Positions 17,336 through 33,828 of a DNA stretch of 64,000 nucleotides are shown here, in pieces. This DNA is from Thiocapsa marina 5811 (lineage in GTDB: Bacteria > Pseudomonadota > Gammaproteobacteria > Chromatiales > Chromatiaceae). The translations under genes were made by a program, and so were the position numbers. The notes under the pieces are model-generated. The model was not told the DNA's origin. It saw nothing but the letters and a program-made list of their open reading frames with translations, and made no database searches. Numbering within the stretch: the first letter of the stretch is position 1; every line of letters begins with the position of its first letter. Location of the stretch: NCBI RefSeq assembly GCF_000223985.1, contig NZ_AFWV01000001.1, positions 248,001 to 312,000 of the forward strand, given 5' to 3'.

Positions 17336-17683
17336 GAGGGGAGCTTCTCGGGAGGAAAGAGGATCTGCCGATGGTATACCGACTGCGTTCGAGTTTTCTC
17401 CGGGCAAGGCGCGAAATCCCCGTCGAATCGCTCTGCTGACGTCCATTGAGACGTCCGCGGCATGCTCCGCAATTTCCCGTAGCTCAAACGGACGCCTCCA
17501 AAAAAGCGTCCAAAAACGTGCGCCTAGCGCATTTGCCGAGCGCGAGCCACCCTTGCATCAGCGACACCGGGTCGCGTCCGGAAAGCCGGCGCCCTTGTCG
17601 ATCCCCTTGTCGATCGAGATACGGGGGGTCCGCTTCCGAAGGATTCCTGAACATCCGAGAAACCTCGATGAGGAGGCAGCGCC
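17336..17683. other. Divergent intergenic region before the accessory locus
   Basis: 348 bp between the leftward cytochrome gene and the rightward accessory locus. It should hold promoters for both. I see no convincing -35/-10 pair, no member of the palindromic repeat family and no RNA gene. A strong GAGGAGG ribosome-binding site ends it, eight bases before the first gene of the locus. Confidence 0.5.
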
Positions 17684-18664
17684 ATGGGTGCATTCGAAGA
17701 CGATCTCTACGACGACTTCGCAGCCGCAGAGGCTGAAGGGGCCGCATTGATGGGCGACGAGCTCGAAGACCTCGGTATGGACGACTTCGAGGACGACTTC
17801 GAGGATGACTTTGCCGAGGGCATGGAGGCGGAGGCCTACGACGACGAGTCCTACTTCGACCTCGAGGCGATGGACGACTTCGAGGCGTACGACGAATTCG
17901 ACGATGGATTCGACGGCTACGAAGACGACTACGAGGACGCCGAGAATGCGCTCGAGGACGTCATGGCCTACGCGCTGGGCGCTGAGGATGCCGACGAATT
18001 CTTTGGACGTTTAATCAAAGGGCTGAAGAAGGTCGGCGGGCGCGTGTTCAAGGCCGTGCGCCGTGCGGCCCCCATGGTCGGTAACATCGCCCGCGGCGTG
18101 TCCCAAGTGGCCAGCCTGATCCCGCACCCCTACGCCCAGGCCGTCGGTGGCGTTGCCGGTCTGGTTGGCCAAGGCGCCAACCTGGTGCAGCGTCTCCGGG
18201 CCGAGGGTGCCAGCGAGGAAGAGGCACTCGACGCCTTCGCCGAATTGGCCGCACGGGATCCGCGAGCCCTGCCGATCGTCGCCGGCCTGACCGCACGCAC
18301 GGTGCTCAAGTCCAAGGCCGCCCGACTCTCGCCGTCGGCCCGCAAACAGGTCGTTAAACAGATGACCCGTGCCGCGAAGAGCCTCACCAACACACGCGGA
18401 CCGGCCGCTGTTCGGGCGATGCCAAAGATCGCCAAGAGCGTGAAGCGAACCGCCGCGGCCAAGGCGGCATCTCCGGCAACCGCGGTGAAGGCGGTGCGGC
18501 GCACCGCAGCCAAGGTCGCGCGCAGCCCGGCCATGACCCGAAAGCTCGCCCGGCCTTCCCCGGTCGCGCGGCAGCGGATCTCGACCGTGGTGCGTAAGCG
18601 AACCGTCCGCCCGCGCACCTACGTCATCCAAGGTCCGGCCCGCATCACCATCAGCGCCGCCTGA
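17684..18664 (+). CDS. Acidic-to-basic Gly/Ala-rich protein (accessory locus gene 1)
   Basis: 326 aa with no known domain that I recognise. Residues 1-105 are extremely acidic and aromatic (DDFEDDFEDDFAEG, DDGFDGYEDDYEDAE). A hinge near residue 105 leads to an amphipathic basic segment (GRLIKGLKKVGGRVFKAVRRAAP) and a Gly/Ala/Val segment with PHPYAQAVGGVAGLVGQ. An EEEALDAF patch precedes a strongly basic tail (residues 210-326, many KRTAAAK-like units). There is no signal peptide. The layout matches the next gene, so the two are probably paralogues. The charge split suggests self-association or a pro-region that masks a membrane-active or nucleic-acid-binding tail; that is inference. Confidence 0.8.
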   Translation: MGAFEDDLYDDFAAAEAEGAALMGDELEDLGMDDFEDDFEDDFAEGMEAEAYDDESYFDLEAMDDFEAYDEFDDGFDGYEDDYEDAENALEDVMAYALGAEDADEFFGRLIKGLKKVGGRVFKAVRRAAPMVGNIARGVSQVASLIPHPYAQAVGGVAGLVGQGANLVQRLRAEGASEEEALDAFAELAARDPRALPIVAGLTARTVLKSKAARLSPSARKQVVKQMTRAAKSLTNTRGPAAVRAMPKIAKSVKRTAAAKAASPATAVKAVRRTAAKVARSPAMTRKLARPSPVARQRISTVVRKRTVRPRTYVIQGPARITISAA

Positions 18665-18691
18665 GCCGCTCGAACCGGCAGGAGAACCGCC

Positions 18692-19423
18692 ATGTACGAT
18701 GCTTACGACCTGCTCGAAGCCGATGCCTTCGACGACTGGGATGCCGGTTTGGACTTCGACGTGTTCGACGAGGACGACCTCTTCGAGGATGACGAATTCC
18801 TCGGTAGCGCTTGGGGCTGGTTGACCCGACCGGGCTCCGTGCAGCGGCGCGTCGCCCTGAATGCCGCACGCGGTGCGATCCAGGGCACCGGAACGGCAGC
18901 CGGAACTGCCATTGGCCTGGGTCTCGGCGGTCCCGGGGGCGCCTTGGCCGGTGGAATTCTCGGCAACACCGTCGGCGGCGGACTATCGGGGCTCCTCCCT
19001 GATCAGATGGATCAGTTCGCGGCCCTCGCCGCAGAGGCCGAAGACGAGGCCGAGGCCGAGGCATTCTTGGGCGCACTCGTGCCCTTGGCCGCCCGCCTGA
19101 TCCCCCAAGCCGGTCAGGCCATCATGCGGGTGGCGCCGCAACTCATCCGGGGACTCGCGGGAACCGCGCAAGCCGTCCATGCCAACCCGGCGGCTCGGCA
19201 GCTGCTGCGCACGGCCGGCACGGTGGTACGTAAGACAGGGGCGGATATCGCGCGGCAAGTGGCGCAAGGTCGGCCCGTGACCGGTCAAACCGCGGTCCGG
19301 CAACTCGCGCGCAACACCTATCGCACCATGGCCGATCCACGGCAAGTACGACGCGCGGCCGCGCGCGCGGCTCGGCCGACGCGCGGGATGCGTCGCCGTT
19401 GCGTGCGTTGGGCTTACCAATAG
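18692..19423 (+). CDS. Acidic-to-basic Gly/Ala-rich protein (accessory locus gene 2)
   Basis: 243 aa and similar in design to its upstream neighbour. An acidic N terminus (DFDVFDEDDLFEDDEF, residues 1-40) is followed by a Gly-rich hydrophobic core (GTAAGTAIGLGLGGPGGALA, about 62-100) that looks like a glycine-zipper. An EDEAEAEAFLGALVP patch comes next, then a basic Arg-rich tail (RQVRRAAARAARPTRGMRRR). GGAG precedes the start, 27 nt after the previous stop. I recall loosely similar acidic proteins with APxLxRxL tails in other bacterial accessory loci, but no function is established to my knowledge. Confidence 0.8.
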   Translation: MYDAYDLLEADAFDDWDAGLDFDVFDEDDLFEDDEFLGSAWGWLTRPGSVQRRVALNAARGAIQGTGTAAGTAIGLGLGGPGGALAGGILGNTVGGGLSGLLPDQMDQFAALAAEAEDEAEAEAFLGALVPLAARLIPQAGQAIMRVAPQLIRGLAGTAQAVHANPAARQLLRTAGTVVRKTGADIARQVAQGRPVTGQTAVRQLARNTYRTMADPRQVRRAAARAARPTRGMRRRCVRWAYQ

Positions 19424-19462
19424 GGACGCCAGCAACCCGGCCGCTCGAGCGGAGACACGACG

Positions 19463-20755
19463 ATGACCATGCCCGCAACGGTACGACCCTTCCTGCAGGA
19501 CAAGGTCCGCACGCTGATCGCGAGGGCGCGTCGTCTGTCGAACCTCACGCCCGAGCGGGTCGGGTTACGGGCGCAGGATCGACCCTACGCCCCCTCGGCA
19601 GCGCATTTCGCGGCTGCCAATCGGCGGCTGCGCGAGATCGACCGGCAGGTCGCGGCACGCGCGGCGTTCCTGAAACAGCACTGGCGTGCATCCTCGCCTC
19701 ATCGGGTGCTGGTCTATCTGGCCCTGGTGGAACGCGAGATCGACCGCGCACGGCGTGCATTCGGCATGTTTTTCGAGGTCTTCAGCCAACGCGGATCGGC
19801 CTTTGCACCGGCGCTGGCGGCTCATGACGCCATCGCCATGGACTGCTACGCCGCCGTGCGCCGTGCCGCGCCCCTGGTCTTTCGCGGACCCCTGCTGAAA
19901 CCTCTGACCTATATGGAGCACGGCTACTCGCCCGCGACCACGCGCCGCGGCATCGCACTGTCTCGGCTGCTCGGCGAGCCCAACCCCTTTCCGTTGATCC
20001 GCATCCCGTGGGATCGAGACAACCCCTGGCAGGCGGTCTTCCTCCATGAGGTCGCGCACAACCTGCAGGCCGACCTGGGGCTCTGGCAGGAGAACCAGGA
20101 TGCCGTCGTCCGACGCCTGGCGCGGACCAACGCGCCCGCCCTGGTCGGGAGCATCTACCGGCGCTGGCACAAGGAGATCTTCGCGGACTTGGCCGCCCTC
20201 CTCCTCGGCGGACCGGCTGCGGCCTGGGGCATGCTGGACTTCCTCGCCCATCCTGTTCAACGGACGGTGACCTACCAGCCGGGCGGCGCGCATCCGACCG
20301 GGTATCTGCGCGCGCTGATCCTTGCCGAGATGTTGGCGCGGATGGGATTCGACGCCGAGGCCGGTCGGGTGCGCGAGGTCTGGAAGACCCTGTATCGGCT
20401 CCCGCGCGGCCACCGCATCCCCTCGGCCCTGCTCTCGAGCGCGGACGGCGTGATCCCCGCCGTGGTCGACGAGGTCGCCTTCCAAACCCGGCGCGGGCTG
20501 GCGCAGCGGGCGCTGGCGGACGTCATCCTCTTCCGCAGGGAGGACGAGCGCGCCATCCGCGACGGCGCCAAGGCGCTGGCGAACAATCGGATTCCGGCCG
20601 ATCTGCCGCCGCGTTTCCTGGTCAGCGCCAGCCGCTACGCACTGGGGATGGGCGCCTCGGCCGGCCCGCTCTCCGACCTCGTCATCCGACATCTATCTAG
20701 ACCGGCCAAGGCCCCGAGCGCCGTCGCACACGACCCACTGCCAATCGCCGCTTGA
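19463..20755 (+). CDS. Putative zinc metallopeptidase (HExxH), accessory locus gene 3
   Basis: 430 aa. It has a HExxH zincin motif, His195-Glu196-x-x-His199 (FLHEVAHNLQ), preceded by a hydrophobic helix. A downstream acidic helix HKEIFADLAALLLGG (Glu238) is a plausible third zinc ligand. This combination is typical of gluzincin-like peptidases, although I cannot name a family. The first 100 residues are rich in Arg/Lys and helix forming. No signal peptide or membrane segment is evident, so it should act in the cytoplasm unless exported another way. It ends 16 nt before the next gene. A substrate among the two upstream acidic proteins is an attractive inference only. Confidence 0.75.
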   Translation: MTMPATVRPFLQDKVRTLIARARRLSNLTPERVGLRAQDRPYAPSAAHFAAANRRLREIDRQVAARAAFLKQHWRASSPHRVLVYLALVEREIDRARRAFGMFFEVFSQRGSAFAPALAAHDAIAMDCYAAVRRAAPLVFRGPLLKPLTYMEHGYSPATTRRGIALSRLLGEPNPFPLIRIPWDRDNPWQAVFLHEVAHNLQADLGLWQENQDAVVRRLARTNAPALVGSIYRRWHKEIFADLAALLLGGPAAAWGMLDFLAHPVQRTVTYQPGGAHPTGYLRALILAEMLARMGFDAEAGRVREVWKTLYRLPRGHRIPSALLSSADGVIPAVVDEVAFQTRRGLAQRALADVILFRREDERAIRDGAKALANNRIPADLPPRFLVSASRYALGMGASAGPLSDLVIRHLSRPAKAPSAVAHDPLPIAA

Positions 20756-20771
20756 GCATCGAGGTGAGACC

Positions 20772-23081
20772 ATGAGCCAACAGACCAACACCAGTGCGCT
20801 CCCCGCCGAGCGCTCGCAGGCGGCCGTCGCCTTGGACAACCTGATCCGCCGACACCTGCGCGTCAGCGACCCGCGTGACCCGGAGGCCATCTCCAACGCA
20901 CTGCGCGAGCGGTATGTGGACGAGCAGGCCGCGCTGGATCAAGAAGCGGCCGGGCTGCCGTTCTTCAAGGTGACGCGGATCGAGACCCGCGCTCCGGTCG
21001 AAACCTCGACCTCCGTAGAATTGAAGCAGGCCCGGGACGATGTCTCGCGTGACCTCGACGCCTTGGTCGGTCACGCCCTGCTGAAGAATGTCCACCCGGA
21101 GCTGCGCGGCTGGGCTCAACACATCCGCCAGTCGGTTGCGGAAGGCGTCAACGCTGCCCGCTTCGCCCTCGATCCCTGGCAGCGTGATCAGGCGATGGCG
21201 ACACGTCGGCTGTTGGGTGACTACGCCCGGATGGCCCGATTCGTCGGCGCTCTGACCCCGGGAATGGGCCACCAGTATCGCAGTCTTGCCAAGAGCCTCG
21301 ACGAGGTCGCCAGCGTCATCCTTGTCACGATCGGCGAGACCATTGCCCAAGCGGGTTTCGGTGGCGGTCGTTTTCTGCTCCAGGCCCCGGCGAGCGAATT
21401 ACAGGCTCGCCGCGACGCCGTCATCAACAGCTTGCGCAACCTCATCGGCAGCCGGCACGCCGTCCTGGAGCAGGACGAGTGGGCCTATGGTCAGCATGCC
21501 TTGCGTCAGGTGATGGAATATCTCGACGGCAGCGGGCTCACCGAGCTGCGCCCCTTGTTCCAAGAGAACCATGTCGCGCGCGTGCTGGACGAGCTCGTGC
21601 ATTGGGCCACGCGCGGCAGCGCCGAGGATCTGCGCGCACTCGGGGCGACAGCCCAGCTGACCTTGGGCCGTTTCCGCCGGCTGATCATGATCACCAAGAA
21701 TATTCCCGACCCGCCCGCACCGCCCTTCTCGGCCTATCTGGACGCCATCCGTTCCTTTTTGGACGCCTTCAGCAGCGGCGCCGGCTATCGCCTGCTCTAT
21801 ATCGCACGACCCGCGATCGCCCACTACGGGCTCTACGGCATCGGTGGCCCGGACGCGCCGTCGCAACGCATGCTCAAGTTGACCGCGTTGCGGGGACAGC
21901 TCGCACAGGCACTCGACTGCTATCTGGGCTGCGAGTGCGGATCCGACCCTGTCCGTTGCCAAGTCTTGCTCGATAAGGTCCTGTACGACGTCGACCGCGC
22001 CATCGATCTCTATGTGATGGGAACCGATCCGAAAGGAAAGGGAACGGCGGAACAGCGTGCCGCGTCGTTCGGTTTCGTAATTGACCAGCTCTTGAAGGAC
22101 ACGACTGAATTCGGAAGCATTCATCTACAAGAACAGTCGTATTTCGACTACAACAGCAACGAAGACCAAAAGACCTGTGTTCAACTGAGATGTGTACCGC
22201 CGAAATCGGATCTATACAAGGACCTTGCGAATATTCGCAATTGTCTCTGGTGGCACTGCTCGCCAACCGAAGAGAATACGCAGCCAACACCATTCAAAGC
22301 ATCCGCGCTTCAACTTATGCGCGAAGAGCTGTGTTTACAGCGTGATGCCGAGGCGCAGTGGGAGAACCTGCTGCATACCATGGCCCCGACTTGTTTCAAC
22401 TGGGGCACCAAGCTAGATAAGTGCACGGTGTCGCCGAGCAACAGCGCGAAGGGTGACATCGAAGATCCCCGCGGACTCTTGGTCCCGACGCAGGACTTAG
22501 TTGAGGCGGCAATCTGCGCGATCGAGCAATCGCTCGGCGAATCGCCACCGGTACACTGCGGCGATCTAGAATTTGGATTCCCCGAAACGGTTGCTCACGC
22601 GATTGGTGAACTGTCCGGCGCACGCCGCCCCGACGCGACCCGTTACGGAGAGACCTTTGCCGAGCCGGCCGCCAAATATCTGAGAGAAGGTCTTAGATTG
22701 ACGAAGCGCCAGGTAGGCGCGCAGATCATCCTCGCGATGCCAGACAATATCACCGCCGACGACGAGAATCTGTTAATTGGGAGATTGAAAGCGTTGTTTG
22801 GCTTTTCAACTCAGGCCACTAAAGTTCCGGCGCAGCGGTATACGATAGTCGCCGACAATCTTCAACTGCAGAAGGCTCAGGAAATCGTCGAGCAAGCAAA
22901 TCTCGATATGAAACAAAAGCTCTTCTTTGTTAGCCGAATCCTTGATCGCGAGTCCGATAGTTGTTGCGCCCCGGTCAAGAGTGAGAACCCAGAACAGCAG
23001 AAGAAGCCAAGGGCGAGCCAAAGATCGTCGCAACCGTCGTCTGCGTCTCCTGGATCTCCAAAGCAGCAAAACGAGAAATAA
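20772..23081 (+). CDS. Large helical protein with compositionally distinct C-terminal third (accessory locus gene 4)
   Basis: 769 aa, no recognised domain. GAGGTGA lies before the start. Residues 1-415 are helical and use the GC-rich codons of the neighbours. From about 22020 (residue 416) onward GC falls sharply: two 60-base lines at 22081 and 22861 count 45% and 43%. The encoded part becomes Cys-rich (CVQLRCVPP, NCLWWHCSP, CCAPV) and ends in a Lys/Ser/Pro/Gln tail (KKPRASQRSSQPSSASP). The change within one gene suggests the 3' portion was acquired or exchanged separately. No signal peptide or membrane helix is clear. It may be the structural or effector component of the locus; this is speculation. 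Confidence 0.75.
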   Translation: MSQQTNTSALPAERSQAAVALDNLIRRHLRVSDPRDPEAISNALRERYVDEQAALDQEAAGLPFFKVTRIETRAPVETSTSVELKQARDDVSRDLDALVGHALLKNVHPELRGWAQHIRQSVAEGVNAARFALDPWQRDQAMATRRLLGDYARMARFVGALTPGMGHQYRSLAKSLDEVASVILVTIGETIAQAGFGGGRFLLQAPASELQARRDAVINSLRNLIGSRHAVLEQDEWAYGQHALRQVMEYLDGSGLTELRPLFQENHVARVLDELVHWATRGSAEDLRALGATAQLTLGRFRRLIMITKNIPDPPAPPFSAYLDAIRSFLDAFSSGAGYRLLYIARPAIAHYGLYGIGGPDAPSQRMLKLTALRGQLAQALDCYLGCECGSDPVRCQVLLDKVLYDVDRAIDLYVMGTDPKGKGTAEQRAASFGFVIDQLLKDTTEFGSIHLQEQSYFDYNSNEDQKTCVQLRCVPPKSDLYKDLANIRNCLWWHCSPTEENTQPTPFKASALQLMREELCLQRDAEAQWENLLHTMAPTCFNWGTKLDKCTVSPSNSAKGDIEDPRGLLVPTQDLVEAAICAIEQSLGESPPVHCGDLEFGFPETVAHAIGELSGARRPDATRYGETFAEPAAKYLREGLRLTKRQVGAQIILAMPDNITADDENLLIGRLKALFGFSTQATKVPAQRYTIVADNLQLQKAQEIVEQANLDMKQKLFFVSRILDRESDSCCAPVKSENPEQQKKPRASQRSSQPSSASPGSPKQQNEK

Positions 23082-23158
23082 CTTTGAGAGCGCGCCCTCG
23101 CATCCGAGCCTTGCCGCACCATCACGCAGCGGTCCGCAGCCTTAAGAGGTAGGAGACC

Positions 23159-24262
23159 ATGGCCTACGAAAACTACGAAACCATCACCCGCCTCTGGCAG
23201 CGCTTCCTGCGTGAGCAGCTCGAGCAGTTGCCGCCGGAGGAACGCAAGAACCTCGAAGGCGAGTTCGAGAAACGCTTCGGCGAGCTCCAGAAAGGGGCGT
23301 CCGGCGATTCCAGTCTCGGCTTCGCCGACCTGATCGGCTTCGGTGCGAAGGGTGTTCTTCCCTTCGGGGAACTGCCCTACGCGCATCTGGTGCCGGATTT
23401 CGACGAGTCGGTGATCCCGAGCCAGCTCCACGCCGCCGCCGAGCTGTATTTCATCTATCAGCACGAGCGTATGAAGGCATTTCAGGTGGCCGACGTGCTG
23501 CGCCAGCTCTTTCAGCTCGGGCGGATGCGGGTGCAGCGCGGGCCGGGTGCGCGGGCGCTCTACATCCTGGAGAAATGGAAGCCGCTGCGCTATGCGTTGC
23601 GCGATCGCATGATCGCCTATCGGCGGGTGTTCAACTACGGCAGCGCACCGGCGCCGGCCGGGGCGGTGGTCAACCAGGGCTTCCACCGGCAGCTCGTCGC
23701 CTTCATGGCGGCGATGGCTCAGTATTTCCGGGATATGACCGTCGGCGAGGTGATCCGTGGCTCGCAGGACATCGACGACCGACCCTTCGGCAATCTGGCC
23801 AGCATTCAGCGGCTCGGCACCGACCTGCGTTTCGCGTTGGACCGCGCGAGCTACGGCAACATCCTGGCGCTGACCCACGAGACGGGCCACTACCTGAGCA
23901 CCCTGCTCGACCTCTTCGATCAGCCCGACATCAAGAAGGCGTTCGACGCCAACACCAAGTGGGACGTGATCGAGGTCGTCTCGAACCGTCATCTCGGCGG
24001 TATGGCGGAGCTCTCGCAGCGCGCCAAGATGGCCGAGAGCGGCCGGCGCATCCTGCAGTGGATCGCGGATCAGGACTTCGAGACGACCGCCGACCCGCTT
24101 GTCTTCCGCTCCGAAGCGCGGCCCTTCGGCGCGCACGCCGAGGCCTGGATCGCCGCTTACCGGATGACCGCCGAGGGCCGCGCCTTCCCGGGTGTCGGCA
24201 GCGCCATGCGCTCGACCCTGGGGCTGAAGACGCGCAAGCCCTCCCTGGCGCTCGCCTCCTAA
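23159..24262 (+). CDS. Putative HExxH-motif protein (accessory locus gene 5)
   Basis: 367 aa, family not recognised. It begins with a charged helical region (RFLREQLEQLPPEERKNLEG). A second HExxH motif occurs at His240-Glu241-x-x-His244 in ILALTHETGHYLSTLL, a hydrophobic helix context expected of a zincin active site; Glu272 (WDVIEVV) is one possible third ligand. RGFH-like and GAHAEAW segments follow. GGAG precedes the start. GC content returns to the level of the flanks. Metallopeptidase activity is inferred from one motif, so it is less certain than for gene 3. Confidence 0.7.
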   Translation: MAYENYETITRLWQRFLREQLEQLPPEERKNLEGEFEKRFGELQKGASGDSSLGFADLIGFGAKGVLPFGELPYAHLVPDFDESVIPSQLHAAAELYFIYQHERMKAFQVADVLRQLFQLGRMRVQRGPGARALYILEKWKPLRYALRDRMIAYRRVFNYGSAPAPAGAVVNQGFHRQLVAFMAAMAQYFRDMTVGEVIRGSQDIDDRPFGNLASIQRLGTDLRFALDRASYGNILALTHETGHYLSTLLDLFDQPDIKKAFDANTKWDVIEVVSNRHLGGMAELSQRAKMAESGRRILQWIADQDFETTADPLVFRSEARPFGAHAEAWIAAYRMTAEGRAFPGVGSAMRSTLGLKTRKPSLALAS

Positions 24263-24285
24263 GTGCCTGACACCGGAGCTGCGCC

Positions 24286-25128
24286 ATGGGTCCGCTCCCG
24301 CCGTTTCAGGTCACGGTCGACACCAAGGGCTGGCTGTGCGTCCTGGATTTGCGGCTTGCCTTGGCGCGCCACGGACCCATGCTGGCGTTGCGCCTCGCCG
24401 AGGAGTTGCGGGTCTGTCTGGTCCCCCGGCTGTGGTCGATCCTCGACAACACCACGCACTATCGGCTGCAGCCCCGGGATCTGCTGGCAGACCCCTTCGC
24501 GGATGCGCGCACGCCGATGCCGGATCCGGCCTCGCTGGACCAATGGGAGCGGGCACGGCTGGATCTCGGTCTCCCTGTCTTGAGACTCTACTGGGCGGGG
24601 GAGCGAATCGACGAGTCCTTCATGCCGAAGGAGGTCGATTCGCAGGTGATCCAACGCTTCGAGCGCTTCGGACTGGATCTGGAGCAGCGTCTGCTCGGGA
24701 CCGCGCCGGATCTCGAGCCGGCCGTGCCGCTGTTGGGCGGCGCGCTGGATGCGACCGCGCTGGCGGCGGCCATGAGCCGCTACCGCCCATTGATCCTGAC
24801 CTTGGCCGAGCCGAGCGACGAGGCCCCGGCGCTCTGCCGCTTGCTCGCCGCCTGCGGGATCGACTGCCGCAAGGTCGACTCCGAGCAGTCCCGCCCGCTG
24901 CGCCGGCAGTTGACGCCATTGCTCGCGCGCAGCGGTGCTCTGGAGCTCTGCTGGAGCGGTCTCGACCTCGCCGTCGTGCATCTCGTGGCCCCGCGCGCCT
25001 TCCTGAGCGAAGCGCTCGACGCGGCGGATCCCGACCTGGAGACCGACCTGGGGTCGTCCTCCGGCGAGGGCGACCGGTTCGACGATGTTTGGCAGGACGC
25101 CAGCGCCTTCTGGTATCGACTGCCATGA
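24286..25128 (+). CDS. Uncharacterised protein (accessory locus gene 6)
   Basis: 280 aa without a family I recognise. It has an alpha/beta pattern: FQVTVDTKGWLCVLDL and LELCWSGLDLAVVHLVAP look like beta strands, and the middle carries RPLILTLAEPSDEAPALCRL followed by AACGIDCRKVDSEQ. This resembles a Rossmann-like half, but no catalytic motif stands out. The acidic C terminus ends DLGSSSGEGDRFDDVWQD. It lies 23 nt after gene 5 and overlaps the next gene (ATGA), so it is translationally coupled to the DUF4438 protein. Confidence 0.72.
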   Translation: MGPLPPFQVTVDTKGWLCVLDLRLALARHGPMLALRLAEELRVCLVPRLWSILDNTTHYRLQPRDLLADPFADARTPMPDPASLDQWERARLDLGLPVLRLYWAGERIDESFMPKEVDSQVIQRFERFGLDLEQRLLGTAPDLEPAVPLLGGALDATALAAAMSRYRPLILTLAEPSDEAPALCRLLAACGIDCRKVDSEQSRPLRRQLTPLLARSGALELCWSGLDLAVVHLVAPRAFLSEALDAADPDLETDLGSSSGEGDRFDDVWQDASAFWYRLP

Positions 25129-26150
25129 AACACCCCCCACTTGCACCGCCGTTGCCCTCGACCCGCCGCCGGGCCGGCACGCCGTCGATGAATCTTAAGG
25201 AACTGGTCATGGTCGCGGTCGCCGGCGAGATCGTCCCGCCGACCCAGGGCAGCAGCCCCTACCGGATCGGCCGCGACGGGGTGCCGCGCGTGGTGCCGGG
25301 GCCGGGCGGGATCGTGATCAGCCACCGCGTCGGGGATCCGTGCGTCGGCCTCGCGGCCGATCACCTCGAGCCGGGCGTCGCGGTCGAGAGCCGCCAGCGC
25401 GCCCTCAAGGGGAAGCCGAATGCAGCCAATCTGGCGCTGAACACCTACGCCTGTGTGGGCAACGCGGCGCGCGTGCTGACCGGCCCCTGCACGGATCAGA
25501 AGGGCACGGTGACGGGCAAGCACGGCGGCATCGACCACGTCCTGGTCGACTTTCCGGATTCGGTCCTGCGGCGTCTGCGCATCGGCGACCGGATTCAAAT
25601 CTACTCGCACGGTCTGGGGCTGCGGCTGCCGGAGCATCCCGAGTTGACGCTCTACAACTGCTCCCCGCTGCTGATCCGCCGCTGGGGATTGCGCTCGGCG
25701 CCGGACCGGTTGAGGGTGCCGGTCACGCATCTGCTGCCCGCCGGGATCATCGGTTCCGGGATCGGTCGCGACAATAGCTGTCGCGGCGACGGAGACATTC
25801 AATTGTCCGATCCGCAGGTGCGCCGACGCTTTCGACTCGATCGCCTTCGCTTCGGCGACCTGGTGGCGATCCGGGGTGCCGACCATCGCTACGGGCGCAC
25901 CTTGCGGCCCGGCTATACGACGATCGGCGTGGTCGTGCACGGCGACAGTCTCAAGAGCGGGCATGGACCCGGGGTGGTCAGCCTCATCACCGGACCGGCG
26001 CGCTCGCTCGAGCCGGTGCACGAGGCGAACGCCAATCTGGCGAGGATTCTCGATCTGCGCAAGGAGGGGCAGATCGGGCGTCGACCGGAGCCGGGGCGCA
26101 CGATCGGCGCATCGGATCGGCTGGACCGGCTCGCCTCGGCATTGATGTGA
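25125..26150 (+). CDS. DUF4438 family protein (accessory locus gene 7)
   Basis: 341 aa. Start set at the ATG overlapping the upstream stop. Motifs that I associate with DUF4438 (structurally known from Thermotoga TM1086) are VAVAGEIVPP near residue 30, GGIVISHRVGDPCVGL with HLEPGVAV, and GNAARVLTGPCTDQKGTVTG. HGGIDHVLVDFPD and DRIQIYSHGLGLRLP follow, then LPAGIIGSGIGRDNSCRGDGDI and GYTTIGVVVHGDSLKSGHGP. Such proteins are free-standing all-beta enzymes of unknown reaction. The charged residues in these Gly-rich loops suggest an active site. Its presence in a protease-rich locus is unusual in my experience. Confidence 0.8.
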   Translation: MKHPPLAPPLPSTRRRAGTPSMNLKELVMVAVAGEIVPPTQGSSPYRIGRDGVPRVVPGPGGIVISHRVGDPCVGLAADHLEPGVAVESRQRALKGKPNAANLALNTYACVGNAARVLTGPCTDQKGTVTGKHGGIDHVLVDFPDSVLRRLRIGDRIQIYSHGLGLRLPEHPELTLYNCSPLLIRRWGLRSAPDRLRVPVTHLLPAGIIGSGIGRDNSCRGDGDIQLSDPQVRRRFRLDRLRFGDLVAIRGADHRYGRTLRPGYTTIGVVVHGDSLKSGHGPGVVSLITGPARSLEPVHEANANLARILDLRKEGQIGRRPEPGRTIGASDRLDRLASALM

Positions 26151-26363
26151 ACGCTGCTCCGGACGCAACCTGGCCGGACGCCCTTGCCAATCAGGCAGCG
26201 GGCGGCTCCACGCGGACCTGTGCTGAATTCGGTCGACCGGAGCCCGCTGGCCCGGGGGCCGATTGAAACCGGCGAACCCACAGACCGGTGCGCCGACTTG
26301 CGTCGTCCCCCGGGTACGCCGACTTCAGTCGGCTCTTCGTTCGACCGATCATTGGAGGCAACC

Positions 26364-26942
26364 ATGACACAGAGTCAAGGCACGCAGGCACGACCCGCCG
26401 CCCGCAACCAGCGAGAACAGGATTGCGTCGATCTCGACGCCTTGGTGCTTGCCGAGATCGAATCCCTGATCGCTCGCCGCAAGGCCGCCCGCGAGCAGCC
26501 GCGGACGCACACGCCCCCGGCGCAAACACCCGCGCCCCGGGCTCGTGACACAACCGCACGGCGCGGCGGGAGGGTCGCCCCGCTTCGCACCCCGTCCGAA
26601 CCCACATCCGAATGGACCGGAGAGTCTTTCGACGAGGACCCGGAAGCACTGTTCGCGGAGCCGCCACCGAATCCGGAGCAGGAACCCCAGGAGTCTCACC
26701 CAAGCCTCTTGAGCCCGGAGGAGGAGGCCTTCATCACCCGGGCGGTCGGCTTCCTGTCCCAGCGTGCGGAGGCCGACATCATCCTGAATCGCATCTGGGA
26801 GCAATTGACCGAGTTGGATCCCGAGGGCTACTACGAAGCCCCGCACGAGGGTTCGGATCCGCGACCCGGCGAGGCCCTCGCGAGGTCGGCGGGGAGCGGC
26901 GAAGTCGACACCGCCGCGACCGACGGCGCCCCCGAGGACTAA
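26364..26942 (+). CDS. Disordered acidic protein (accessory locus gene 8)
   Basis: 192 aa, start at the ATG with TTGGAGGC upstream. The N-terminal helix (LDALVLAEIESLIARRKAAR) is followed by a Pro/Thr/Arg-rich linker (HTPPAQTPAPRARDT), an acidic region, and a short predicted helical domain (LSPEEEAFITRAVGFLSQRA, residues 120-160). The tail is acidic. It ends four bases before the serine protease gene, so the two are probably coupled and this protein may be a partner, inhibitor or substrate. The 213-bp gap ahead of it could contain an internal promoter. No known family. Confidence 0.7.
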   Translation: MTQSQGTQARPAARNQREQDCVDLDALVLAEIESLIARRKAAREQPRTHTPPAQTPAPRARDTTARRGGRVAPLRTPSEPTSEWTGESFDEDPEALFAEPPPNPEQEPQESHPSLLSPEEEAFITRAVGFLSQRAEADIILNRIWEQLTELDPEGYYEAPHEGSDPRPGEALARSAGSGEVDTAATDGAPED

Positions 26943-26946
26943 GGGC

Positions 26947-27783
26947 ATGCTCGCGGAGCTGGATGCCTTCACGGCATTGGCCGAATCGGGCGAGCGCGAC
27001 TATGCGCTGGTCGGCCCCGACGACAACCGGGTTCACGAGACCCGCACGCGGCGCTTTCCCTACAACACCATCTGCCATCTCGGGCGCGACTTCGGCGACG
27101 GCCTGTGGCGCGGGTGCAGCGGCGCGTTGATCGGACCGCGCCACGTCCTGACCGCGGCGCACTGCCTCTACAGCCTGAAGCTGCAGCGCCCGCCCGTGCG
27201 TGTGCGCGTCGCTCCGGGGCGAGCCGATCGCGACCGGTTCCCGTTCGGCACCCAACTGGCGATCGAGGGCTATGTGCCGCGAGGCTTCATCCAGGCACGC
27301 TCGACCTCTGCCCGTCGACCCTACGACTATGGCCTCGTGGTGTTGCCCCGGCCCTTCCCCGGGATCACGCGCTTCCTTCCGTTGCGGGTCTTGACCGATG
27401 CACAGTTGAAACGGCTCGAATCGGGTGCGCCCCTGACGGTCGCCGGCTACCCGGCCGATCGCCCGATCGGCAGCCTCTGGTGGCACAGCGAGCGGCTGCG
27501 TCGCTTCACCCCGCAGCGCCTGCTCTACACGGTGGATACCTGTCCGGGTCACAGCGGCAGCCCGATTTGGGCAACCCTCGCCGGCGTGCCCGCGGTCGTC
27601 GGGATTCATACCTCGGGGATCCTCGACGAGCGTGGTCGCTCCTATGGTTGCGCGAAGGGCACCATCCTGGCGCCGCCCGGTAGATTGAACAGCGGCGTGC
27701 GCGTCACCGCGGAGGTCGCCGCGAACCTACGCGATCCCCGGCGAGCCCCGGCGGGCCGATCGCCGATGATCCGGGTGCTCTGA
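26947..27783 (+). CDS. Trypsin-fold serine protease without signal peptide (accessory locus gene 9)
   Basis: 278 aa S1-family protease. The triad is visible as His72 (LTAAHC), Asp127 (YDYGLVVL) and Ser203 (CPGHSGSPIW). GHSGSP in place of GDSGGP is typical of the V8/glutamyl-endopeptidase-like S1B branch. The N terminus (MLAELDAFTALAESG) is not a signal peptide and starts only four bases after gene 8, so the enzyme probably folds in the cytoplasm or leaves by a non-Sec route. Cys pairs (Cys57/Cys73; Cys199 and a later Cys) could form disulfides if exported. The substrate may be among the locus proteins. Confidence 0.85.
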   Translation: MLAELDAFTALAESGERDYALVGPDDNRVHETRTRRFPYNTICHLGRDFGDGLWRGCSGALIGPRHVLTAAHCLYSLKLQRPPVRVRVAPGRADRDRFPFGTQLAIEGYVPRGFIQARSTSARRPYDYGLVVLPRPFPGITRFLPLRVLTDAQLKRLESGAPLTVAGYPADRPIGSLWWHSERLRRFTPQRLLYTVDTCPGHSGSPIWATLAGVPAVVGIHTSGILDERGRSYGCAKGTILAPPGRLNSGVRVTAEVAANLRDPRRAPAGRSPMIRVL

Positions 27784-27811
27784 CCTCGGGTGCCCGGCTG
27801 GATCGTGCGCC

Positions 27812-28663
27812 ATGATTCGCGACCTCGATGCCCCGCGGGGGCCGAACGCCCGCACAATCGCGCACCATCGCATCCCGCCGTATGCGAGCTTGGCGGCCGA
27901 TTACGACGCGCTCGTCGGGGACGCGCTGTTCCCGGTCATACGCAGGAGCTTCGATGCCTGTGTCCGCCGACTGGGCTTGCGTTTCCGGAGCATCGCCGAC
28001 ATCGGCTGCGGAACCGGGCGCTTTTTGGGCGACCTGCTGCGCCGCTACGACGTGCCCATGATCGGGGTCGACCGCTCACCGCAGATGCTCGAGGTCGCCG
28101 CGAGGCGATTGCGGGGCCCGGGGGTGGTGCTCTTGCGGCAGGACATGCGCCGCCTATGTCTACCGTATCCGGTCGACCTCATGACCTGCAACGGCGACAC
28201 CTTGAATTATTTGGTGACGATGGACGATCTTGTCGCGGCCTTGCGGGCCTGCCGCGAGAACCTCACACCCGGTGGATATCTGCTCGGGGATCTCCTGAGC
28301 GGCCGCCCGGCGGCGGAGGCGCACGGATCGGAGGATGTGCTGCTGGCGCCATCCGGTCTGACCAGCCGTTGGCGCGCAACCTGCGGCGGGCCGCCGGGAA
28401 CGACACGAGTCGAGATTCGTTTCGGTCGGCGCGGGGAGGCACGCGAGGTCCATTTACAGCGGTGGCACAGCCTCGCCGACATCGAGGCGGCAGCTCATCG
28501 GGCCGGGCTGCGCCTCGTCTCGGCGGAACCGCTTCTGATGGAGGCAGGCCATCGAAAGCGCGCAGCTTGGCTGAAGATCGCGATCCGTCGGGCCGGTGCG
28601 CCGCGACGATTGGACCGCGGCGCGACGACCGCACCGACACGACACTATGGGGGACGTCTCTGA
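27812..28663 (+). CDS. SAM-dependent class I methyltransferase (accessory locus gene 10)
   Basis: 283 aa. SAM-binding motif I is IADIGCGTGRFLGDLL (residues 61-76). Acidic residue Asp at the end of strand 2 is in MIGVDRSPQML, motif II/III region is VVLLRQDMRRL and DLMTCNGDTLNYL, and the post-motif PGGYLLGDLLS follows. It resembles small-molecule or protein methyltransferases of the Methyltransf_25 type; the acceptor cannot be read from sequence. It lies 28 nt after the protease on the same strand, so it is likely the last structural gene of the run. Confidence 0.82.
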   Translation: MIRDLDAPRGPNARTIAHHRIPPYASLAADYDALVGDALFPVIRRSFDACVRRLGLRFRSIADIGCGTGRFLGDLLRRYDVPMIGVDRSPQMLEVAARRLRGPGVVLLRQDMRRLCLPYPVDLMTCNGDTLNYLVTMDDLVAALRACRENLTPGGYLLGDLLSGRPAAEAHGSEDVLLAPSGLTSRWRATCGGPPGTTRVEIRFGRRGEAREVHLQRWHSLADIEAAAHRAGLRLVSAEPLLMEAGHRKRAAWLKIAIRRAGAPRRLDRGATTAPTRHYGGRL

Positions 28664-28727
28664 GAGCCCCTCGGGCAGACACTCGGCAACGGCCGTTAGT
28701 CGGGACGCGGGCCAGCCAAGCCGGGTT

Positions 28728-28755
28728 TTGGGACATGCGTCGGCCGCCCTATGCT
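28728..28755 (+). promoter_or_regulatory. Possible promoter for the LuxR-type regulator
   Basis: TTGGGA (28728-28733) and TATGCT (28750-28755) are separated by 16 bp, about 100 nt upstream of the regulator gene, and lie in the only sizeable gap at this end of the locus. This is a weak match to a sigma-70 promoter and is positional inference. Confidence 0.3.
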
Positions 28756-28851
28756 ATTTTCTGCGTACGCTCGAATGCACGATAAGAAGATCTCGTCCCC
28801 GGGACGCATGGCGACGTTCAACCTGATCCACGTCAGGACGGAACCCATGTT

Positions 28852-29265
28852 ATGAAGGCAATCGACGAGTTCACCATCGCGGACACCCGATGCCGGGTGG
28901 TCCCTGCGGTCGGCACGGACGACGAGGAAGGCGGCGAGCTCCGCGCCCGGGCCTGCTGTGGAACGGAGGCCGCGCAGATCATCGGGAAATGCTCGCTGAA
29001 TGGCCGCCGCTATCTCATCCTGATCGACGCGCGCGCGTCTCCGCCGGAACCGAAGGACAGGGTCGGGATCCTCGAACGCTTGACCCAGCGCGAGCTTCAG
29101 GTCGCCATGCTGGTCAGCAAAGGCTTGGTGAACAAACAGATCGCCGATCGGCTGCACCTGCGCGAGTGTACCGTTTCATCCTACATGCGCCGCATCTTCT
29201 TGAAGTTGGGCGTGCGCACGCGCGCGGCGATGGTCGCGCGGGTGATCGCGGAATTGGGGGAATGA
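28852..29265 (+). CDS. LuxR-type HTH transcriptional regulator (accessory locus gene 11)
   Basis: 137 aa. The C-terminal half (77-137) is a LuxR/GerE helix-turn-helix: LTQRELQVAMLVSKGLVNKQIADRLHLRECTVSSYMRRI. The first 70 residues contain two Cys (RACCGTE) and a short beta-rich stretch (NGRRYLILIDA), too short for a receiver or autoinducer domain. It has no phosphorylatable Asp context. It is a single-domain regulator that sits at the end of the protease locus, same strand, and is a reasonable candidate for its control. No binding site can be assigned. Confidence 0.82.
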   Translation: MKAIDEFTIADTRCRVVPAVGTDDEEGGELRARACCGTEAAQIIGKCSLNGRRYLILIDARASPPEPKDRVGILERLTQRELQVAMLVSKGLVNKQIADRLHLRECTVSSYMRRIFLKLGVRTRAAMVARVIAELGE

Positions 29266-29693
29266 CCCGTAACGATGCTTGCGCCGCGCCTGCGATGCCG
29301 CGAGTCCGCACCAAGTCAGCGCACGACCGACCCGACAAGACCCCGCTCGGCATCAATATCAGGCCATTTCGCCTGCCCTTCGAGCCCGACTGAAGGACCG
29401 CACCGCGTCCGAGCCCCGACGATCGCCGGCCAGCGCGGCGCAGCCGGGGGCCAAGGTCAACCCATAGCACAAGACAGCGCCGACGTTTTGTGGGATCGTT
29501 GGCACCTGAATCGAACCCGTCGGTCACACTCAGGAACGATGTTTGCTTTCCGGCTACCAGGATGCGCCGCCCGACGGCAGGACACCCACGCCCCGATCCA
29601 TATTTCGTCTTCCGACCGAGCCTCGCGAGCGCAAGCGCCGCAGGGCGATCGTCCACTTCGAACCCCGACACTTCAGTTAGGAACCCAGCCCCG
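29266..29693. other. Intergenic region, 428 bp
   Basis: Gap between the LuxR-type regulator and the transglutaminase gene. Frames read through it in several phases but have no start signal and no resemblance to known proteins. A TTGGCACCTGAATCGA segment near 29500 looks like half of a sigma-54 site but lacks the TTGC element. No RNA gene or repeat family member was seen. Confidence 0.45.
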
Positions 29694-33189: not shown

Positions 33190-33245
33190 TCACCAAGTCG
33201 TAAAGTCATCGGCACCGCTGTTCCGGCACACGGCAGGCACAATCA
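33190..33245 (-). pseudogene. 3' remnant of a second type IV pilin gene
   Basis: Read on the minus strand the segment encodes IVPAVCRNSGADDFTTW then TGA. The intact pilin gene ends [17 protein letters not shown] then TGA at 33932-33985. The two stretches match at most positions, including an uninterrupted run of more than 20 bases. Homology stops exactly at the higA stop codon (33243-33245). The fragment therefore looks like the tail of a tandem pilin gene whose body was replaced by the higBA module. Confidence 0.72.
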
Positions 33246-33533
33246 GCCAACGCGCGCGATTCGGTTCATCTCGTCGCTCAGTGCATCGCTTGCCTGTTCA
33301 AGATCGTATTTGCTCTGCAAAGACATCCAGAATGCCGGGGTCGTGCCGAAGTAGCGACCAAGCCGCAATGCCATATCGGCGCTGATTCCTTGAGCACCGG
33401 CGAGAACAGCGTCAAGGCGCCTAGCCGGGATGCGCAGGTCCGCTGCCGCGCGTTCAGGATCGATGCCAAGCTCGTTCAGGAACTCCGACAGGTGCTCGCC
33501 GGGGTGAACAGGTGCGATGTCGCGTATGGGCAT
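33243..33533 (-). CDS. higA: HigA antitoxin (XRE-type HTH)
   Basis: 96 aa. The start at MPIRDIAPVHPGEHL gives the usual HigA beginning; HPGEHLSEFL and the helix-turn-helix (ERAAADLRIPARRLDAVLAGAQGISADMALRLGRYFG) are intact, as is TPAFWMSLQSKYDLE. It neutralises HigB and represses the operon. It lies 13 nt after higB. The stop codon overlaps the pilin remnant. Confidence 0.93.
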   Translation of the reverse strand: MPIRDIAPVHPGEHLSEFLNELGIDPERAAADLRIPARRLDAVLAGAQGISADMALRLGRYFGTTPAFWMSLQSKYDLEQASDALSDEMNRIARVG

Positions 33534-33546
33534 GGTGGTAAAGGCC

Positions 33547-33828
33547 TCAGTGATAATCCGTGATCTCGACCTCGACGGCATCGCCGTCGCGCCAGACAAA
33601 ACAAATCCTCCACTGGTCGTTGATGCGGATGCTCCACTGCCCGGCGCGGTTTCCGACCAACGCCTCGAGACGGTGAGACGGCGGCAGGCGCAGATCGTCC
33701 AATGCCGATGCCGCATCGATGCGGTCGAGTCGCATCTTGGCGCGACGCTGGATCTCCGGCGGGAACCGCCGCGAGCGCCGGCCTTGGGCGATCAACTCGG
33801 TTTCTTTGCAGCGGAACTCCTTGATCAT
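33547..33828 (-). CDS. higB: HigB toxin (RelE/ParE-superfamily mRNA interferase)
   Basis: 93 aa from MIKEFRCKETELI; an upstream ATG 15 bases earlier is possible. Typical HigB features are RRFPPEIQRRAKMRLDRIDAA, LEALVGNRAGQWSIRINDQWRICFVWRDGDA and VEITDYH. It is expected to cleave mRNA on the ribosome when HigA is degraded. Toxin-first gene order is the norm for higBA. The length and key basic/aromatic residues look complete, so it is likely functional. Confidence 0.93.
   Translation of the reverse strand: MIKEFRCKETELIAQGRRSRRFPPEIQRRAKMRLDRIDAASALDDLRLPPSHRLEALVGNRAGQWSIRINDQWRICFVWRDGDAVEVEITDYH

What the first reader, a model, noticed from the sequence alone, without database searches (positions are those of the whole stretch)
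17684..29265. Eleven-gene protease-rich accessory locus of unknown function
Eleven same-strand genes, mostly with short gaps or overlaps and similar GGAG ribosome-binding sites, are bounded by ordinary metabolic genes. They encode two acidic-to-basic glycine-rich proteins, two HExxH proteins, a 769-aa mosaic protein, an unknown alpha/beta protein, a DUF4438 protein, a disordered protein, a trypsin-fold protease without signal peptide, a methyltransferase and a LuxR-type regulator. I know of no described system with this set. A working idea is a protein-processing system in which the proteases mature or release the charged proteins. That is speculation; the gene set and arrangement are what is seen.
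Basis: partly seen in the sequence, partly recalled or inferred. Interest (0 to 1): 0.85.

Follow-up and report, generated by a model that had tools for sequence, protein, structure and literature searches.

The report
Mobile acidic-protein and protease gene cassette
A block of eleven genes in a purple sulfur bacterium turns out to be a movable cassette that recurs, in the same order, in distantly related bacteria and is a distant cousin of undescribed cassettes that carry cell-wall-cutting enzymes, so it is a good candidate for a new self-processing weapon or export system.

Summary
The eleven genes are real and form a 12-kb accessory insertion: in 8 of 11 genus genomes (own included) both flanks share a contig; 3 are filled, 5 empty. 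Most of the set recurs in the same order in genomes outside the class, so it is a conserved unit. It is the divergent branch of an undescribed cassette family built round one HExxH...ExxxD protein and acidic-headed glycine-rich proteins (80 distinct loci fetched in one species-genome scan). In the sister branch a downstream slot carries varied peptidoglycan hydrolases and proteases with an aromatic-acidic N-terminal tag. Corrections: the second 'HExxH protein' does not conserve the motif; the 'trypsin' is a V8-type glutamyl endopeptidase by sequence. The acidic proteins hold Glu only in head and linker; their cationic remainder is Glu-free. My best mechanism: the metallopeptidase frees the endopeptidase's N-terminus; it then strips the acidic parts and releases cationic, membrane-active pieces, probably against other bacteria. 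Order, conservation and specificity residues are shown; processing, export and killing are inferred. Genes 1-6 match nothing in Pfam, NCBIfam, PADLOC or PHROGs, and my paper searches showed no description.

The parts
17684..18664 (+). acidic protein 1 (326 aa): acidic aromatic head 1-105, Glu-free cationic segment 106-173, acidic linker 174-187, Glu-free basic tail 188-326
   Evidence: longest Glu-free run 139 aa, 0 of 2000 shuffles reach it; relatives in L008, L009, L106, L130, L132
18692..19423 (+). acidic protein 2 (243 aa): acidic head 1-35, GxxxG zipper 67-95, acidic linker 115-123, Glu-free tail 124-243
   Evidence: Glu-free tail 42 and 47 of 2000 shuffles; relatives in L008, L009, L017 and L132 (blastp 2.8e-8)
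19463..20755 (+). HExxH1 putative metallopeptidase (430 aa), H195 E196 H199, E238, D242; anchor gene of the cassette family
   Evidence: these residues invariant in 48 aligned rows; AF2 model all-helical, pLDDT 66
20772..23081 (+). gene 4 (769 aa), unknown family; about 150 extra C-terminal residues and low G+C 3' part compared with 576-601 aa orthologues
   Evidence: orthologues in L008, L009, L106, L130, L132; G+C; no match in four libraries
23159..24262 (+). gene 5 (367 aa), conserved cassette protein; its HETGH motif is not conserved
   Evidence: 61% in L106, 63% in L130, 53% in L132, 33-36% in L017, L107, L131; motif lost
24286..25128 (+). gene 6 (280 aa), unknown family
   Evidence: 28-30% identical relatives in L106, L130, L132
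25125..26150 (+). DUF4438 protein (341 aa, or 320 aa from 25188); relative of Thermotoga TM1086
   Evidence: Pfam 4.9e-48 and 1.5e-41; PDB 3dcl, 3n99 E about 6e-60; 54% in L106 and L130, none in L017, L107, L131, L132
26364..26942 (+). disordered protein (192 aa)
   Evidence: similar proteins only in L008 and L009; L106, L130 (118 aa) and L132 (86 aa) have a protein in this place without detectable similarity
26947..27783 (+). glutamyl endopeptidase-like protease (278 aa): H72, D127, S203, T198, H221, G224; about 20 residues precede the aligned mature N-terminus
   Evidence: best PDB match 1p3c E 2.8e-16; H72, D127, S203, T198, H221 invariant in 10 of 10 aligned cassette proteases
27812..28663 (+). 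class I methyltransferase (283 aa)
   Evidence: Pfam 1.5e-17; among 8 window-branch loci only in L008 and L009
28852..29265 (+). LuxR-type (GerE) regulator (137 aa)
   Evidence: Pfam 3.5e-15; relatives in 8 of 8 window-branch loci
17400..29460 (.). approximate extent of the accessory insertion between two conserved divergent flanks
   Evidence: empty sites in 5 genomes: homology ends at window 17380-17542 and resumes at 29445-29470

Best explanation
The locus is a horizontally moving, self-contained cassette of an undescribed family. Its product is a pair of charge-segregated proproteins: an aromatic-acidic head, a Glu-free cationic or glycine-zipper segment, a short acidic linker and a Glu-free basic tail. 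A metallopeptidase (HExxH1) removes the short N-terminal extension of a V8-type glutamyl endopeptidase; the new N-terminus completes the Glu-recognising pocket, as in the V8 and B. intermedius enzymes. The endopeptidase then cuts after Glu in heads and linkers, which frees the cationic pieces (68 and 139 residues in acidic protein 1). These pieces insert in or coat membranes, most likely of competing bacteria; genes 4-6, DUF4438, the disordered protein and the methyltransferase serve assembly, immunity or modification, and the LuxR protein switches the unit on. Shown: gene order and its conservation, insertion, specificity residues, charge design. Inferred: the cascade, release, export route and target.
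For: Gene order kept in L008, L009, L106, L130, L132. Insertion with empty sites. Protease closest to glutamyl endopeptidases; T198, H221 and G224 lie 5 before, 18 and 21 after S203, the spacing of Thr190, His213 and residue 216 from Ser195. The review PMC5508998 (passages read) names His213 and Thr/Ser190 as key pocket residues, puts the free N-terminal amino group of V8 and BIGEP in the place of a side chain at 216, and calls these enzymes heterocatalytically processed; PMC4874363 (passages) says S. aureus SspA is activated by the metalloprotease aureolysin. Glu confined to head and linker: acidic protein 1 and its relatives in L008, L106, L130, L132, all with the endopeptidase, 0 of 2000 shuffles each; L107 and L131, without it, 629 and 655 of 2000. 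In the sister branch the downstream slot holds peptidoglycan hydrolases and proteases.
Against: L017 has no endopeptidase in its 18.8 kb yet its acidic protein shows the Glu-free design (0 of 2000), as do 67 of 71 sister-branch acidic proteins, while only 8 of 89 sister-branch loci carry the endopeptidase (L011 and L090 are one contig); so the design is not tied to this enzyme, and basic segments lack Glu partly by definition. L107 and L131 are one genus. Acidic protein 2 is weaker (42 and 47 of 2000). The review says the determinants of Glu specificity remain unclear and speaks of Glu/Gln binding for the same residues. No transporter, signal peptide (crude test) or recognised immunity gene is seen. 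HExxH1 gave no fold match (model pLDDT only 66).
Confidence: 0.35

Rival explanations
1. The acidic glycine-rich proteins are not pro-toxins but a scaffold (membrane-bound or condensate-like). The aromatic-acidic N-terminal tag is a docking or export signal; enzymes that carry it, including the glutamyl endopeptidase, are cargo carried out of the cell without Sec signals, and the protease trims tags at release.
For: In the sister branch 48 of 65 cargo proteins have at least 3 aromatic-acidic neighbours in the first 60 residues, against 56 of 653 other called proteins of the loci; crude signal peptides 1 of 65 against 115 of 653. Cargo domains vary at one slot. C-terminal motif in 69 of 71 chosen acidic proteins and in 0 of 1070 proteins outside their cluster. 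Protease heads in L043, L092 and L132 look like the tag.
Against: The window protease has a weak tag (score 2), and HExxH1, gene 4, gene 6, DUF4438 and the disordered protein none (score 0). No translocator was recognised.
Confidence: 0.33
2. An intracellular defence or stress-suicide unit: infection or damage activates the metallopeptidase and the glutamyl endopeptidase, which free membrane-active pieces that kill the producer.
For: The window proteins lack signal peptides by a crude test; a distant HExxH1 relative on a Bradyrhizobium plasmid lies among patatin, phospholipase D-like and CHAT genes.
Against: No PADLOC match for the 9 window proteins scanned beyond a weak LmuA hit of 15.8 bits; the cell-wall-hydrolase cargo of the sister branch does not fit; no sensor domain seen.
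Confidence: 0.12
3. A RiPP-like cluster: the acidic proteins are long precursors whose conserved C-terminal end is modified and cut off.
For: Conserved C-terminal motif in the sister branch; sister operons have a BioF/serine-palmitoyltransferase-like enzyme and an amidohydrolase; a methyltransferase here.
Against: Precursors of about 180-350 aa conserved at both ends; no NCBIfam model matches the acidic proteins; no PLP enzyme or amidohydrolase among the window's genes, and the methyltransferase is in only L008 and L009 of 8 window-branch loci.
Confidence: 0.06
4. An accidental cluster of unrelated genes.
For: Gaps of 213 and 188 nt; methyltransferase, DUF4438 and acidic protein 2 come and go.
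Against: Same order outside the class.
Confidence: 0.03

Closest known systems
Cdz contact-dependent glycine-zipper bacteriocins of Caulobacter (PMC5380434; abstract and passages read)
   Same: Two co-encoded glycine-rich proteins that may assemble at the cell surface and act on membranes
   Different: [quoted passage not shown] here 326 and 243 aa, acidic heads, proteases, and no transporter or recognised immunity gene
Staphylococcal aureolysin - SspA (V8) zymogen cascade (PMC4874363 passages; PMC5508998 passages)
   Same: A metalloprotease beside a V8-type glutamyl endopeptidase with an N-terminal extension
   Different: Those are secreted enzymes (recalled: with signal peptides, not clustered with acidic glycine-rich substrates); HExxH1 here matches no known peptidase family and its activity is untested
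Polymorphic toxin systems (recalled; PMC7159879 seen only in a search listing)
   Same: Sister branch: shared N-terminal tag followed by varied lytic domains at one slot
   Different: No known trafficking domain, no recognised immunity genes, and different core proteins
TM1086 / DUF4438 (PDB 3dcl, 3n99)
   Same: The DUF4438 gene is a full-length relative (E about 6e-60)
   Different: No function is known to me; no paper in the library holds the term DUF4438. Seven papers hold the string TM1086 (listing; titles mostly unrelated, none read)

Membership tests
Glutamyl endopeptidase (V8/BIGEP group) | Catalytic His, Asp, Ser | tested here: met
   H72, D127, S203, invariant in 10 of 10 aligned cassette proteases
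Glutamyl endopeptidase (V8/BIGEP group) | S1 residues Thr/Ser190 and His213; no side chain at 216 | tested here: met
   T198, H221, G224 by spacing from S203 and alignment with 1p3c; rule from PMC5508998, which calls the determinants not fully clear
Glutamyl endopeptidase (V8/BIGEP group) | Pro-part ahead of the mature N-terminus | tested here: met
   Residue 24 aligns with residue 4 of the 1p3c chain, leaving about 20 residues
Glutamyl endopeptidase (V8/BIGEP group) | Cleavage after Glu | not testable with these tools
   needs an enzyme assay
Glutamyl endopeptidase (V8/BIGEP group) | Signal peptide (recalled for the secreted members) | tested here: not met
   crude test negative; so a member by its domain, not a typical secreted one
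HExxH...E metallopeptidase (HExxH1) | HExxH plus downstream Glu, conserved | tested here: met
   H195, E196, H199, E238, D242 invariant in 48 of 48 aligned rows
HExxH...E metallopeptidase (HExxH1) | Zincin fold | tested here: inconclusive
   all-helical model, pLDDT 66, no PDB match at E <= 0.001
   HETGH in the window, L008 and L009; RETGQ in L106, SEVMV in L107
Cdz system | Type I secretion genes beside two glycine-zipper proteins | tested here: not met
   no transporter domain in the eleven window genes; none recognised in the gene lists of L008, L009, L106, L107, L130-L132 between the acidic and the LuxR gene, where not every extra gene was scanned
Cdz system | Glycine zipper (extended GxxxG) | tested here: inconclusive
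   acidic protein 2 yes, acidic protein 1 no
Known anti-phage defence system | PADLOC model match | tested here: not met
   9 of 11 window proteins scanned; only LmuA at 15.8 bits
Sister-branch acidic protein family | C-terminal motif G.W.R.G..I.L and profile match | tested here: not met
   window ends YVIQGPARITISAA, a similar but differently spaced strand; the profile reaches L107 at 4.5e-5 and L009 at 0.006, the window proteins not at all

The most novel reading that the evidence does not exclude
A previously undescribed protein export or assembly system, spread over several phyla: acidic glycine-rich proteins form a carrier, an aromatic-acidic N-terminal tag recruits varied lytic enzymes that lack Sec signals, and proteases, in the window branch a metallopeptidase and glutamyl endopeptidase pair, trim tags and heads to arm the cargo and the carrier against other bacteria.
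Probability: 0.3. Interest if true: 0.92.

Novelty: categorically new. Interest (0 to 1): 0.73.

Why it matters
If right, scores of species at least carry an unrecognised way to move and arm lytic enzymes and cationic glycine-rich proteins, built from core proteins that the family libraries do not hold. The window branch offers a compact test case: two predicted proteases and their two predicted substrates side by side. It also gives DUF4438, a family with solved structures and no function that I could find, a genetic context.

Tried and rejected
Second metalloprotease (gene 5): rejected, the motif is lost in orthologues. Gene 5 as a form of the sister-branch BIG protein: hhalign E 0.014 with 3 rows but 0.11-0.12 with 5 rows, and a best BIG hit of 0.014 by HMM; suggestive only, not claimed. 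Gene 4 as BIG: no similarity. Phage origin: no match of the sister-branch HExxH1 in phages and none of the window-branch profile in viral contigs. Known defence. Sulfur-globule proteins, thought of because the host is probably a purple sulfur bacterium: put aside from recall (they have signal peptides), and the cassette also occurs outside that class. Fold search of HExxH1: 0 matches at E <= 0.001. BIG model (pLDDT 73.5): N-terminal pilin/CnaB-like sandwich only. Promoter scan: 0 sigma-70-like sites; 11 terminator-like sites against 7.0 expected, uninformative. Nuclease cargo: 2 GIY-YIG and 1 weak HNH among 65; I did not find which two carry GIY-YIG, so no weight is put on them. Paper searches whose listings showed no description of this gene set; most listed papers were not opened. 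Odds: after rechecking, L017 (design without the endopeptidase) had been left out of my draft; for that I lowered the best explanation from 0.38 to 0.35 and raised the carrier rival from 0.32 to 0.33.
Full report
What is there. The eleven ORFs of the finding are real. They lie between an 803-aa multihaem/TPR protein and a transglutaminase/DUF2126 protein. The genome is G000, 5.59 Mb, and the window lies on its contig C62. Its genus is probably Thiocapsa: congener G003 has a contig of the same length (62565) carrying the same HExxH1 as NZ_JAABRP010000001.1, 'Thiocapsa sp. isolate S07.Bin152'. That is inference.

It is an insertion. I placed both flanking genes in the 11 genomes of the genus search, own included. 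In 8 of 11 both lie on one contig: the gap between them is 12.4-12.8 kb in G000, G004 and G008, and 0.5-1.3 kb in G001, G002, G003, G007 and G010. In G005, G006 and G009 they are on different contigs. No integrase or transposase was recognised among its genes.

It is a unit. HExxH1 was found in 6 of 56 genomes (G000, G004, G008 and three distant forms), in 3 of 274 of the class and in 6 of 398 of the phylum, own genome included each time. A tblastn check of all eleven proteins against the 8 window-branch loci gives: HExxH1, gene 5 and LuxR in 8 of 8; acidic protein 1, gene 4, gene 6 and the endopeptidase in 5 of 8 (L008, L009, L106, L130, L132); DUF4438 in 4 (L008, L009, L106, L130); acidic protein 2 in 3 (L008, L009, L017; a fourth, in L132, only by blastp); methyltransferase and disordered protein in 2 (L008, L009). 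L107 and L131 have an acidic protein that matches acidic protein 1 by blastp. L106 (G465) and L130 (G698), outside the class, keep the window's order for acidic protein 1, HExxH1 (61-62%), gene 4 (39-43%), gene 5 (61-63%), gene 6 (28-29%), DUF4438 (54%), the protease (44-46%) and LuxR (36-37%), with an extra gene of about 230 aa after DUF4438 and, in L106, a 234-aa gene between genes 4 and 5. L132 (G798) keeps the order without DUF4438. L107 (G394), L131 (G788) and L017 (a Paraburkholderia plasmid) hold short forms. In relatives of G465 it occurs in 2 of 81 and in relatives of G394 in 3 of 80 genomes, the centres included, so it is sporadic. DUF4438 occurs in 69 of 299 sampled genomes of the phylum, nearly all of one family (f198); outside f195, f198, f218 and f231 only G000, G465 and G477 have it, and the first two carry it inside the cassette.

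A wider family. One scan of the species genomes with the distant HExxH1 group gave 222 relative-encoding stretches; the best 80, on 80 distinct loci, were kept, so 222 need not mean as many loci. Labels include Thiocapsa, Nitrosomonas, Methylococcales, Janthinobacterium, Massilia, Variovorax, Bradyrhizobium, and assemblies labelled Nitrospira, Acidobacteria, Planctomycetia, Verrucomicrobia, Chloroflexi and Methylomirabilis. I called genes in these 80 and 9 further loci (89, of which L011 and L090 are one contig) and clustered them with the window block. Acidic proteins were called in 79 loci (204 members), HExxH1 in 75 of 89 (all have it by six-frame profile), a BIG protein of about 700 aa in 71, a sigma-54 activator in 58, a PLP enzyme in 56 and an amidohydrolase in 48; many loci are cut by contig ends. 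The usual order is ACID-ACID-HExxH-BIG-PLP-cargo-amidohydrolase, with the sigma-54 activator facing it; domain names are. The branches are linked by HExxH1: 17-27% identical, E 1.5e-6 to 1.9e-8 for single sequences and 1.5e-95 for L106 against a profile that included the window's own protein, with H195, E196, H199, E238 and D242 invariant in 48 rows. The acidic proteins of the two branches are linked only weakly: the sister-branch profile reaches L107 at 4.5e-5 and L009 at 0.006, and not the window.

Cargo in the sister branch. Of 112 candidate proteins of the slot I scanned 65, leaving out mainly near copies, M20-peptidase-like genes and further acidic proteins: PG_binding_1 in 32, PG_binding_3 in 13, Amidase_2 in 7, trypsin in 5, M74 in 3, OmpA in 3, glucosaminidase, DUF2272 and GIY-YIG in 2 each, VanY, M23, papain and a weak HNH in 1 each. 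The N-terminal 60 residues of 48 of 65 have three or more aromatic-acidic neighbours, against 56 of 653 other called proteins of the loci (rough control). Crude signal peptides: 1 of 65 against 115 of 653. The motif G.W.R.G..I.L near the C-terminus, written after seeing such ends, is in 69 of 71 acidic proteins (chosen by length and start from the 204), in 47 of the other 133 of that cluster and in 0 of 1070 proteins outside it; a 501-aa (L046) and a 335-aa (L050) cargo protein end in it as well.

The protease. The window's 'trypsin' matches glutamyl endopeptidases best (1p3c, 2.8e-16). Aligned with nine other cassette proteases (its cluster without the near copy L008, plus L106), His72, Asp127, Ser203, Thr198 and His221 are invariant in 10 of 10. 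Counting from Ser203 as Ser195, Thr198 and His221 fall on 190 and 213 and Gly224 on 216. PMC5508998 (passages) names His213 and Thr/Ser190 as key, though it calls the determinants of specificity still unclear and speaks of Glu/Gln binding; it says that in V8 and BIGEP the N-terminal amino group makes up for the missing side chain at 216 and that these enzymes are heterocatalytically processed. PMC4874363 (passage) says SspA of S. aureus is activated by the metalloprotease aureolysin. The window protein has about 20 residues before the aligned mature N-terminus. Hence the proposed pair: HExxH1 activates the endopeptidase. This is inference; neither enzyme has been assayed. By profile on six-frame ORFs the endopeptidase occurs in 13 of 98 loci: 5 of 8 window-branch loci and 8 of 89 sister-branch loci, not in L133.

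The substrates. Acidic protein 1 has all 25 Glu in residues 1-187; 106-173 (net +11) and 188-326 (net +33) are Glu-free, and 0 of 2000 shuffles give so long a Glu-free run. The same holds for L008, L106, L130 and L132 (0 of 2000 each), all with the endopeptidase; acidic protein 2 is weaker (42 and 47 of 2000 in two runs; L008 41, L009 29). L107 and L131, without the endopeptidase, show no such run (629 and 655 of 2000), but they are one genus, and L017, also without it, does show one (0 of 2000). So do 67 of 71 sister-branch acidic proteins. Charge segregation is thus a family trait, and its match with a Glu-specific protease is suggestive, not a proof of partnership.

What is corrected. Gene 5 is a conserved cassette protein but not a recognisable metalloprotease. 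Gene 4 carries about 150 extra C-terminal residues and a 3' part of 47-59% G+C against 64-68% before it; in L008 and L009 a 179-aa gene, a CBS-domain protein by Pfam in L009, stands between genes 4 and 5 and is missing in the window.

How likely. That this is a conserved, mobile, undescribed cassette I hold at about 0.9. The two-protease maturation model with antagonism as purpose is about 0.35; the carrier model 0.33; they overlap. I choose 'categorically new' because genes 1-6 matched nothing in four libraries, the sister core proteins matched nothing above cut-off in Pfam or NCBIfam, none of the systems tested fits, and six paper searches showed no description in their listings. Subscription papers and preprints were not searchable, so a description may exist.

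Noticed in passing
window 33243-33828 (-): A HigB-like toxin gene (33547-33828, Pfam 7.5e-17) beside a 96-aa gene without a Pfam match at 1e-5 that looks by eye like a HigA partner: a toxin-antitoxin pair just beyond the right flank.
   Followed up: no
window 21972-23081: The 3' half of the 769-aa gene has 47-59% G+C against 64-68% before it and a C-terminal extension lacking in orthologues; a CBS-domain gene found in L008 and L009 is gone here.
   Followed up: partly
L133 5076-13148: A distant HExxH1 relative on a Bradyrhizobium quebecense plasmid lies in a run of patatin, DUF2252, phospholipase D-like and two CHAT genes, a third context for this family.
   Followed up: partly
L090 7337-8425 and its cluster in 56 loci: The PLP enzyme of sister operons resembles BioF, serine palmitoyltransferase and autoinducer synthases (all below cut-off), so these operons might make their own lipid or signal.
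   Followed up: no
L027 10332-12479 and relatives: BIG proteins have no Pfam match and many invariant residues in the C-terminal helical part; the model of the L021 member has an N-terminal pilin/CnaB-like sandwich.
   Followed up: partly
window 26947-27783: The endopeptidase also matches an uncharacterised phage protein family, phrog_13651, at 8.5e-11.
   Followed up: no
L011 1-564: A protein made of near-perfect repeats of about 14 residues (AEAEVQARLEATAR) runs off the contig end beside a sister operon.
   Followed up: no
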